DNA of 42,036 bases from Bacillota bacterium (GTDB lineage: Bacteria; Bacillota; Sulfobacillia; Sulfobacillales; JAIMBI01), in contig JAJZWS010000025.1 of assembly GCA_021846565.1 (NCBI GenBank), positions 1-42,036 on the forward strand, read 5' to 3'. This document shows positions 7,222 through 9,128 of this stretch, one piece after another. A model generated the notes under the pieces. It made no database searches. It had not been told where the DNA came from and saw only the letters and a list, made by a program, of their open reading frames with translations. Both the position numbers and the translations under genes were made by a program. How positions within the stretch are numbered: position 1 is the first letter of the stretch; each line of letters begins with the position of its first letter.

Positions 7222-7313
7222 TGAATCCGGCATTACGCCGAGTCTAAATCCTATGCGCTGGCGTTAGTGTGGCACAATGGGCCGAACCCGTCCAGCCACG
7301 GTGGGCTCTATGC

Positions 7314-7444
7314 TAAAACCTGTGGGATCGCGTAGCCGCAGAAAGAAGCGGCAGCACGTCCAATTCGTAGGTCGCTCCGGCCGACGGACGAGGGGGCTTC
7401 CCGCCGGCACCGAGGATCGTGCATCGCCGGCAGCCGTGTTAGGC
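7314..7444 (+). repeat. 131-bp degenerate dispersed repeat, copy A
   Basis: Begins TAAAACCTGTGGGATCGCG and ends near GTGTTAGGCG. It aligns along its whole length, by eye about three quarters identical with few gaps, with copy B at 8998-9128 in the same orientation. Neither strand keeps an intact gene. Plus-strand conceptual translation gives a shared basic peptide pattern (RKKR, then TRGLP). The minus strand gives a shared WTC-x-RFFL, later GF and EP pattern. It may be a decayed mobile-element fragment. Confidence 0.7.
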
Positions 7445-7707
7445 GAACGACGGTAGGGTGGCGGACCCAGATCGCACAGCCCGGCGCTGAGCCCTACGCG
7501 GTCGGCGTCTTCTCCCATTTGCCCGAGGGGTGTCCGACGGGATTCCGCGCGTCCGAGGCCCGGAGCCCGGTGTCGCGACCGTGTGTCCATCAAGCCCGCG
7601 ATCTAGCTGCTCCCCATTCGTAGCCGCCATAACCCCGTTGGCACCTCACGGGTCCGCACCAGGCCGATGACCGCGGCCGAGGGGCCTCTGCGGGGTGGTT
7701 GTTTGAG

Positions 7708-7736
7708 TTGACACCCACGGTCCGCCCCCGTAGCAT
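7708..7736 (+). promoter_or_regulatory. Sigma-A promoter for the FMN riboswitch transcript
   Basis: A perfect -35 box TTGACA at 7708-7713, a 17-bp spacer and TAGCAT at 7731-7736 (4 of 6 to TATAAT). Transcription would begin near 7743, some 60 bp before the aptamer, giving a leader of about 320 nt. Confidence 0.6.
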
Positions 7737-7800
7737 GGCTCAGTGCAGTCGCCGTGTTGGCGACCCGCTGTCGCGGGGGGAGTCGTCCCAATTTCATAGA

Positions 7801-7972
7801 CCTTCAGGGCAGGGTGAGGCCGCTGAGCGGCGGCCAATTCCCGATCGGTGGTAATTCAGCCAAGTCTGATGAGCCCACGAGCTGCCGAATCGCATCGCGC
7901 ACCGCGCGGGCGACTCGGATGCAGGAACGGGTGCGAATCCCGTGCCGACGGTACAGTCCGGATGGAAGAAGG
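7801..7972 (+). promoter_or_regulatory. FMN riboswitch (RFN element) aptamer
   Basis: All conserved blocks of the RFN element occur in order: AGGGCAGGGTGA, AATTCCCGATCGGTGGT, GAGCCCACGA, GGGTGCGAATCCCGTGCCGACGG (split here as GGGTGCGAATCCC then GTGCCGACGGTACAG) and TCCGGATGGAAGAAGG. The P1 helix pairs CCTTC at 7801-7805 with GAAGG at 7968-7972. FMN binding to this RNA normally lowers expression of riboflavin synthesis or uptake genes. An unusual 18-nt insert, GGCCGC-TGAGCG-GCGGCC at 7818-7835, forms its own 6-bp hairpin inside the normally short, conserved P2 loop. The only gene downstream is an EamA-family transporter. Confidence 0.93.
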
Positions 7973-8036
7973 CGTTCTCATGCCCCGGTGCCGCGCCGAG
8001 TCGGCTGGTGCCCCCGGGCAGGGATTAGACCCTGAG

Positions 8037-8067
8037 GAGTCTCCCATTTAAGGGGGCTCATTTTCTT
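8037..8067 (+). terminator. Riboswitch expression platform: terminator / ribosome-site hairpin
   Basis: GAG-t-CTCCC at 8037-8045 pairs with GGGGGCTC at 8052-8059 around the loop ATTTAA, followed by a T-rich run to 8067. The 3' arm contains the only good ribosome site (AAGGGGG) for the TTG start at 8066, so one hairpin could both stop transcription and hide the ribosome site when FMN is bound. An upstream AGGGATTAGACCCT segment (8020-8033) could take part in an alternative fold. Confidence 0.6.
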
Positions 8068-8923
8068 GTCGGTTGCCATTGCGTTCGTGGTCCTCTCGGG
8101 GCTACTGCAGGCCGTGTGGAATCTGTTTGCCAAACAAAGCCCCCATCCGCTGGTCTTCCTGTGGTCGTTTCAGTGGGTGGCGGTCCTCGTCTTTCTGCCT
8201 TGGGCACTGATCCCTCTGGGCAGCCCCCACTCCATCCCCCCAGATGGCTGGCTGCTTCTAGCTGCCACCGCCAGCGTGCACGGTGTCTACGTGATTCTCC
8301 TCTCGCGCACCTATGAGGCCGGAGATTTATCGCAGGTGTACCCCATCATGCGCGGCATCAGTCCGCTGTTGGTGCCGCTCGTGGGAGCGACGGTCCTCGA
8401 CGAGATCGTATCGGCACCGGCGTGGCTGGGAATTGCCGCCATTGTCGGCGGCATCGCGATGCTCGGCGACTGGCGCCGCGGGACGCAGCCCGATGCCCGT
8501 GCGCAAGCGCCTTGGGTCACACGCATGGCTGTGGCCGTGGGGCTGGCGATTACGACGTACATCCTGCTGGACAAGGTGACTCTCCATTACGTGCCTGCCA
8601 TCACCCTGAACGATGGGTGCAATCTCGGAAACCTGCTGGCCCTATCGTGGGGGGCCCTCCGCTCCGGCGTCATTCGAGCGGAGTGGACGCGTCGCTGGCA
8701 GACCATCATCTTGGGCGGCCTGTTGGCGCCAGGATCCTACCTGCTTTTCCTCGCGTCCCTTCGCTTAGCGGCAGTGGCACAGATGGCCCCCATGAGGGAG
8801 ATCGGGACGGTCTTCGGCACCGGGTTCGGCGTCCTGGTGCTAAAGGAAGCGCACGGTTGGCGACGCGTGACGGCGGCGGGCCTGATCGCCGTGGGGGTGC
8901 TGGCGATCGGGCTGTGGGGGTAG
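8066..8923 (+). CDS. EamA/DMT-family transporter under FMN riboswitch control; predicted flavin importer
   Basis: A 285-residue membrane protein with about ten hydrophobic helices in two halves, the EamA (drug/metabolite transporter) fold. Family marks include the first-helix motif WNLFAK, the YPIMRGISPLLVPLVGA segment near residue 92 that closes the first half, and a matching segment near 243 in the second (MREIGTVFGTGFGVLVLKE). The start is a TTG placed nine bases after GGGGG inside the riboswitch hairpin. Regulation by FMN argues that the substrate is riboflavin or a precursor or analogue, by analogy with the EamA-type riboflavin carriers RibN and ImpX. The substrate itself is inference. 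It is a single-gene transcript lying between two direct repeats. Confidence 0.85.
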   Translation: MSVAIAFVVLSGLLQAVWNLFAKQSPHPLVFLWSFQWVAVLVFLPWALIPLGSPHSIPPDGWLLLAATASVHGVYVILLSRTYEAGDLSQVYPIMRGISPLLVPLVGATVLDEIVSAPAWLGIAAIVGGIAMLGDWRRGTQPDARAQAPWVTRMAVAVGLAITTYILLDKVTLHYVPAITLNDGCNLGNLLALSWGALRSGVIRAEWTRRWQTIILGGLLAPGSYLLFLASLRLAAVAQMAPMREIGTVFGTGFGVLVLKEAHGWRRVTAAGLIAVGVLAIGLWG

Positions 8924-8997
8924 GCGGAGCCCACGCACGTCACTCCCCAGGATCAGAGGGTCGAGGTCGCCCTCCCCCGACCGCCGCGGCTCACTGT

Positions 8998-9128
8998 TAA
9001 AACCTATGGGAACGCGTAGCGGGAGGAAGAAGCGGCCGCAGGTCCACTTCATCGATCGCGCACATCGACCAACGAGAGGGCTTCCGCGGTGACAGAGGAT
9101 AGGGCATCGCCGGCAGTCGTGTTGGGCG
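8998..9128 (+). repeat. 131-bp degenerate dispersed repeat, copy B
   Basis: Same length and orientation as copy A at 7314-7444: starts TAAAACCTATGGGAACGCG and ends GTGTTGGGCG. The strongest blocks are GAAGAAGCGGC, GAGGGCTTCC and GCATCGCCGGCAG. The 695 bp between the transporter (8923) and the ferredoxin gene (9620) hold only this repeat, a short CPACGS-encoding scrap near 9180-9250 that soon meets a stop, and the inverted copy C. Confidence 0.7.

What the first reader, a model, noticed from the sequence alone, without database searches (positions are those of the whole stretch)
7708..8923. FMN riboswitch controlling a lone EamA/DMT transporter: candidate flavin importer
The sequence shows a full RFN element with its own TTGACA promoter directly before one EamA-family gene and no riboflavin synthesis gene. 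RFN elements are known to control riboflavin synthesis and uptake only, and two EamA-type flavin carriers (RibN, ImpX) are known elsewhere. I infer that this protein imports riboflavin or a close relative. Whether it belongs to a known carrier group or is a new branch cannot be told here.
Basis: partly seen in the sequence, partly recalled or inferred. Interest (0 to 1): 0.8.

Follow-up and report, generated by a model that had tools for sequence, protein, structure and literature searches.

The report
FMN-switched EamA transporter, likely vitamin B2 importer
This bacterium carries a vitamin-B2-sensing RNA switch directly in front of a single membrane-carrier gene, and across relatives the two nearly always travel together, so the carrier very probably imports riboflavin; it looks like a separate branch of carriers that the literature I could read does not describe as flavin transporters.

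Summary
Window 7796-7977 is a full FMN riboswitch (RF00050, 83.7 bits, cut-off 66.2), behind a TTGACA-N17-TAGCAT promoter-like site at 7708 and before one 285-aa EamA gene (8066-8923, TTG start). The predicted fold has ten helices, nearest the choline importer LicB.

The link is conserved. In the organism's order (42 genomes) every second FMN riboswitch (8 of 8) precedes this gene, and homologues in Alicyclobacillus and a Clostridia MAG keep it. Paralogues without the switch fall elsewhere in the tree. All 14 riboswitch-bearing leaders share CCCTGARGAGTCTCC...SD directly before the start. It can pair with the aptamer's 5' strand (CUUCAGGG), or form a hairpin over the Shine-Dalgarno site. That predicts OFF when FMN is plentiful, which argues for import over export.

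The genome makes riboflavin itself and has no detectable RibU domain. The family is not the other riboswitch-linked EamA family of Bacillota (probably ImpX): hhalign probability 0.9%, separate on the tree. Authentic ImpX and RibN sequences could not be obtained. Gene loss is frequent. Best reading: a riboflavin (or FMN) importer, a new EamA branch of a known kind. Transport was not tested.

The parts
7708..7736 (+). sigma-70-type promoter-like site TTGACA-N17-TAGCAT
   Evidence: 10 of 12 matches, 0.1 expected in shuffles; consensus match only
7796..7977 (+). FMN riboswitch aptamer (RFN element, RF00050)
   Evidence: 83.7 bits, E 9.8e-18, model 1-138 of 138
7798..7809 (+). 5' strand of the aptamer (AGACCUUCAGGG) that can pair with the downstream anti-sequestor
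   Evidence: duplex -18.4 kcal/mol, 0 of 500 shuffles as good
8030..8042 (+). anti-sequestor segment CCCTGAGGAGTCT, complementary to the aptamer 5' strand (one bulged A)
   Evidence: 15-mer CCCTGARGAGTCTCC in all 14 distinct RFN-bearing leaders of the family, no perfect match in the other RFN loci held
8037..8059 (+). sequestor hairpin GAGTCTCC-N7-GGGGGCTC that would mask the Shine-Dalgarno site; its tail is weakly terminator-like
   Evidence: 8 pairs, about -12.4 kcal/mol; same stem in the homologous leaders
8050..8056 (+). Shine-Dalgarno-like AAGGGGG (AGGAGG in most relatives)
   Evidence: sequence, alignment
8066..8923 (+). EamA/DMT-family transporter, 285 aa, TTG start; proposed riboflavin (FMN) importer
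   Evidence: PF00892; ten helices, pLDDT 88.8; nearest fold LicB choline importer; tree

Best explanation
An FMN-repressed flavin importer. At low FMN the leader's CCCUGAGGAGUCU pairs with the 5' strand of the aptamer (AGACCUUCAGGG). This opens the aptamer and leaves the Shine-Dalgarno site free, so the EamA carrier is made. At high FMN the aptamer closes around FMN, the freed GAGUCUCC pairs with GGGGGCUC over the Shine-Dalgarno site, and translation stops (with perhaps some transcription termination). The carrier, a ten-helix DMT-fold protein, brings in riboflavin (possibly FMN or a close analogue) to top up an organism that also makes riboflavin. Shown: aptamer, gene, conserved linkage, conserved competing complementarities, clade, predicted fold. 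Inferred: FMN binding in this RNA, OFF direction in vivo, import direction, substrate.
For: RFN over the curated cut-off. In the order, the 8 genomes with a second RFN are exactly those with the gene behind it (7 intact, 1 frameshifted). Homologues elsewhere are RFN-preceded. Of 13 distinct intact genes of the clade found, 11 are RFN-preceded. The 15-nt platform is conserved behind a variable spacer (16-74 nt), with no perfect match in any other held RFN locus. The anti-sequestor duplex is -15.9 to -18.9 kcal/mol in the 12 leaders folded at the right place, 0 of 500 shuffles as good in each. The RFN clade has 100/99 support. DMT fold, nearest to the choline importer LicB. No ECF RibU domain detected in the genome, and rib genes present. 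Precedent: the RFN-controlled carriers ImpX and RibN rescue an E. coli ribB mutant (PMC4418817).
Against: No transport or binding data. Two intact clade members lack an RFN (G478/L214; G126/L046), and L046 also lacks Q36, N182 and N189. The nearest curated model is a phosphonate-associated membrane protein of unknown substrate (TIGR03340, 116.6 bits, cut-off 288). A few RFNs control genes with no obvious flavin role (PMC4418817). The pairing segments are mostly invariant, so covariation support is slight.
Confidence: 0.8

Rival explanations
1. The carrier exports a flavin or flavin precursor, made when FMN synthesis is wanted or for extracellular redox use.
For: Many EamA/DMT proteins are exporters (general knowledge), and the family also resembles SMR drug-efflux subunits weakly.
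Against: The conserved platform predicts OFF at high FMN, the wrong sign for an exporter; known RFN-controlled carriers import (PMC4418817); the nearest fold is an importer.
Confidence: 0.08
2. The carrier moves something else (for example an aminophosphonate, amine or another vitamin) and FMN is only a metabolic signal.
For: Best curated model is TIGR03340, a phosphonate-associated family; RFNs before pdxS and a pdxK-like gene occur in the same class.
Against: The TIGR03340 cut-off is missed by far; no phosphonate gene adjacent; the RFN sits on this clade and not on the TIGR03340-like paralogues of the same genomes.
Confidence: 0.1
3. It is simply a divergent ImpX (or RibN), not a separate branch. 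(This rival concerns membership, not function, so it can hold together with the best explanation.)
For: Same fold class, same riboswitch, same single-gene unit, riboflavin-making hosts, as described for ImpX (PMC4418817).
Against: Against the RFN-linked EamA family of f48 and f30 genomes (10 of 11 RFN-preceded, likely ImpX) hhalign gives 0.9% probability and the tree separates them with full support. RibN is reported only in Proteobacteria.
Confidence: 0.15
4. Chance neighbourhood or decaying remnant without function in this genome.
For: Several relatives carry broken copies; the unit lies between two direct repeats.
Against: Intact 285-aa frame, intact aptamer and platform, conserved linkage over Alicyclobacillus, this order and a Clostridia MAG.
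Confidence: 0.03

Closest known systems
ImpX (Fusobacterium nucleatum, Desulfitobacterium hafniense)
   Same: RFN-controlled single-gene carrier in riboflavin-making bacteria; riboflavin uptake shown by complementation for F. nucleatum ImpX (PMC4418817)
   Different: The probable Bacillota ImpX family (A2) shows no significant profile similarity and a separate clade; direct comparison with the named prototypes was not possible
RibN (Rhizobium leguminosarum, Vibrio cholerae)
   Same: DMT-family riboflavin importer; the alphaproteobacterial genes carry an RFN (PMC4418817, PMC10012899)
   Different: Reported only in Proteobacteria; sequence not available here, so relation untested
TIGR03340 phn_DUF6 (phosphonate-associated putative membrane protein)
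   Same: Best curated model over the whole length, 116.6 bits
   Different: Far below its cut-off of 288; no phosphonate context; RFN control instead
LicB, Streptococcus pneumoniae choline importer (PDB 7paf)
   Same: Nearest solved fold, TM-score 0.78; a DMT member that imports
   Different: 14% identity; other substrate
RibU / ECF riboflavin transporter
   Same: Common RFN-controlled riboflavin uptake in Bacillota (RibU-like genes follow many RFNs)
   Different: Unrelated fold; domain PF12822 not found in this genome

Membership tests
FMN riboswitch (RF00050) | Covariance-model score above the curated cut-off over the full aptamer | tested here: met
   83.7 vs 66.2 bits, positions 1-138
FMN riboswitch (RF00050) | Binds FMN and changes structure | not testable with these tools
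   needs in-line probing or ITC
EamA / DMT superfamily | Two PF00892 domains, ten TM helices, DMT fold | tested here: met
ImpX | FMN riboswitch before a single-gene unit in a riboflavin-making host | tested here: met
ImpX | At least 38% identity over 80% to F. nucleatum ImpX (criterion of PMC4418817) | not testable with these tools
ImpX | Groups with the other RFN-linked EamA family of Bacillota (probable ImpX, identity inferred) | tested here: not met
RibN | Sequence orthology to R. leguminosarum RibN | not testable with these tools
   no RibN found among 14 plasmid RFN loci fetched
TIGR03340 phn_DUF6 | Score above 288.15 bits | tested here: not met
   116.6 bits; all 12 members of A3 match the model at E 0.001 or better
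ECF RibU | PF12822 domain | tested here: not met
   protein is EamA; no PF12822 match in the genome
Riboflavin importer (function) | Flavin uptake | not testable with these tools
   needs complementation or uptake assay

The most novel reading that the evidence does not exclude
A further, independently recruited EamA lineage of flavin importers, separate from ImpX and RibN, spread patchily over Alicyclobacillus and related Bacillota. It carries its own conserved expression platform, in which the strand that frees the ribosome site directly invades the 5' strand of the FMN aptamer, and clade-specific polar residues (Q36, N182, N189) that may contact the flavin.
Probability: 0.6. Interest if true: 0.5.

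Novelty: new member of a known kind. Interest (0 to 1): 0.42.

Why it matters
PMC4418817 concluded that unidentified riboflavin transporters exist and counted 720 riboflavin-making species without a known one. This family fills part of that gap for Bacillota in which no RFN-linked RibU was seen. It suggests that the EamA fold was recruited for flavin uptake more than once, and it gives a compact, testable pair: an RNA switch whose two exclusive pairings can be read from sequence, and a carrier with clade-specific residues to mutate. Repeated decay of the gene in relatives bears on the open question of why riboflavin-making bacteria keep an importer.

Tried and rejected
(1) Three RFNs in the genome: rejected, two of them are the same element at two contig ends (127-nt identical overlap). 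(2) Finding authentic RibN or ImpX through RFN-like DNA in the plasmid collection: 14 loci fetched; those with readable genes were ribB, ribH, ribD or rib operons, no EamA. (4) Reading the 2002 RFN paper: not held. (5) Relatives of known structure by sequence: nothing significant. (6) Weak RFN relics near the RFN-less members L214, L008, L013, L046, L063, L065: none even at relaxed threshold. (7) Transcription terminator as the only mechanism: the stem 8037-8059 is terminator-like, but the T-run is interrupted in relatives and the stem holds the Shine-Dalgarno site, so translational control is preferred; a mixed mechanism is not excluded.

Full report
Observation. The window holds a full-length FMN riboswitch aptamer at 7796-7977 on the + strand (RF00050, 83.7 bits, cut-off 66.2, E 9.8e-18). 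A promoter-like site TTGACA-N17-TAGCAT lies at 7708-7736 (10 of 12 matches, 0.1 expected). The only gene behind the aptamer is 8066-8923, TTG start, 285 aa, with two EamA domains. Neighbouring genes (asparagine synthase, a short-chain dehydrogenase, an AMP-binding enzyme, a GNAT protein) have no evident link to flavins.

The organism. The genome (3.4 Mb, 134 contigs) has one further RFN, which lies before ribD-ribE-ribBA-ribH. The search reported three RFNs, but two of them are the same element at the ends of contigs C43 and C52, with an identical overlap of 127 nt. So the organism makes riboflavin. No ECF-type RibU domain was detected (the assembly is 96% complete). The named relatives of the protein lie in Alicyclobacillus, Cohnella and unnamed Bacillota or Clostridia MAGs. 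The leader of the rib operon ends with what looks like an ordinary terminator (GGTTCCCCCGAAGAGCGGGGGAACTTTTTTT, sequence), unlike the transporter.

Conserved linkage. A scan of named genomes found ten homologues (best segments 47-70% identical), and eight have an RFN directly upstream. In the 42 genomes of the order, eight have a second RFN (G000, G001, G008, G011, G019, G027, G029, G038), and in all eight it lies before this gene (seven intact, one frameshifted); no other genome of the order shows a second RFN. Counting each locus once (G019 and G038 give the same scores as L006 and L007 and are taken as the same loci), 13 distinct intact members of the clade were found and 11 have the RFN. 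The exceptions are G478/L214 (79% identical to the A. kakegawensis protein; leader replaced) and G126/L046 (40% identity, f48), with no relic even at a relaxed threshold. The counts are not independent trials because the genomes are related, but the linkage spans Alicyclobacillus, this order and a Clostridia MAG.

Expression platform. Alignment of the leaders shows that the spacer after the aptamer is unconserved and 16-74 nt long, but that directly before the start codon all 14 distinct RFN-bearing leaders carry CCCTGARGAGTCTCC, a short loop, then a Shine-Dalgarno stretch, mostly AGGAGGCTC (GGGGGCTC in the window and in L007). No other held RFN locus, about 100 of them, has a perfect match. 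Two exclusive pairings follow. GAGUCUCC pairs with GGAGGCUC and masks the ribosome site (about -12 to -15 kcal/mol). CCCUGARG-A-GUCU pairs with the aptamer's own 5' strand AGAC-CUUCAGGG (-15.9 to -18.9 kcal/mol; 0 of 500 shuffles as good in each of 12 leaders; for L011 the script picked an earlier CCCTGA, so that row is not used). Since the 5' strand belongs to the closed aptamer, FMN binding should release the sequestor: FMN turns the gene off. This is an inference from sequence; covariation is slight because most positions are invariant. The window's own changes (A to G in CCCTGAGG, AGGAGG to AGGGGG) and the GGAGACTC of L010 keep both pairings through wobble or Watson-Crick exchange. The hairpin also looks weakly like a terminator, so a mixed mechanism is possible.

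The protein. AlphaFold2 on an alignment of 12 members gives ten membrane helices, mean pLDDT 88.8, pTM 0.87. The nearest solved fold is LicB, a choline importer (TM-score 0.78), followed by nucleotide-sugar transporters and other DMT structures. No solved relative is found by sequence. The best curated model is TIGR03340, a phosphonate-associated putative membrane protein, far under its cut-off (116.6 against 288). The RFN-less paralogue of the same genome matches it about as well (104 bits).

Phylogeny. In a tree of 52 proteins the 11 RFN-bearing ones plus L046 form one clade (100/99), apart from RFN-less paralogues of the same genomes and from proteobacterial relatives. The other RFN-linked EamA family lies beyond a long, fully supported branch. 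Residues fixed in the RFN clade and different in its sisters include Q36, M95, S99, N182, N189 and F228. The RFN-less L214 and the Cohnella copy keep Q36, N182 and N189, while the diverged L046 does not. That would fit a retained substrate in the former and a changed one in L046, but it is only a lead.

Comparison with known carriers. Reading the genes behind about 100 RFNs of the phylum gave mostly ribD and RibU-like genes and one other EamA family, in f48 genomes (Paenibacillus-like by size). Its relatives occur in 11 of 398 genomes (f48, f30 and one of the window's class), and 10 of 11 are RFN-preceded. Profile comparison with our family gives 0.9% probability. So our family is not that family. 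RibN is known only from Proteobacteria (PMC4418817) and could not be fetched. No paper found describes an EamA family with an FMN riboswitch in Alicyclobacillus or relatives (open-access texts only).

Decay. The gene is broken in several relatives: frameshifts in G011/L011 and L012, an N-terminal deletion behind an intact RFN in G480/L215, an internal deletion and lost leader in G035/L013, a fragment next to resolvase-like sequence in G006/L063, an internal stop in Cohnella L008. Most are draft assemblies, so single frameshifts may be errors. The patchy presence (4 intact copies in 3 of 41 genomes of the Alicyclobacillus family) suggests a dispensable uptake function.

Verdict. The most likely function is import of riboflavin (or FMN) under FMN repression, in a bacterium that also makes riboflavin. 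It is a new member of a known kind (RFN-controlled EamA flavin carriers), and probably a separate branch. Function is untested.

Noticed in passing
window 7304-7445 and 8988-9128: The riboswitch-transporter unit lies between two direct copies of a ~142-nt repeat (78-82% identical); three further partial copies occur in the genome (C87, C131, C57) with a shared core like GGCTCTATGCTAAAACCTGTGGGAT. Nature unknown; may hint at mobility.
   Followed up: partly
L114 (G054:C22) and L116 (G053:C189): FMN riboswitches before pdxS (vitamin B6 synthase) and before a pyridoxine-kinase-like gene in genomes of the same class (read by eye); the first resembles the Thermaerobacter yaaD case of PMC4418817, the second may be a further link between FMN sensing and vitamin B6.
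   Followed up: no
L083 (G197), L089 (G163): FMN riboswitch before an ABC-transporter ATPase gene, possibly a RibXY-type system.
   Followed up: no
L004 and L010 (Alicyclobacillus sp. ALC3): Two copies of the transporter in one genome, each with its own FMN riboswitch and platform.
   Followed up: partly
L150, L151, L167, L186-L195: A second RFN-linked EamA family in f48 and f30 genomes, probably ImpX.
   Followed up: yes
L215 (G480): Intact FMN riboswitch and expression platform in front of a transporter gene that lost its first ~125 codons: a riboswitch left without its gene.
   Followed up: partly
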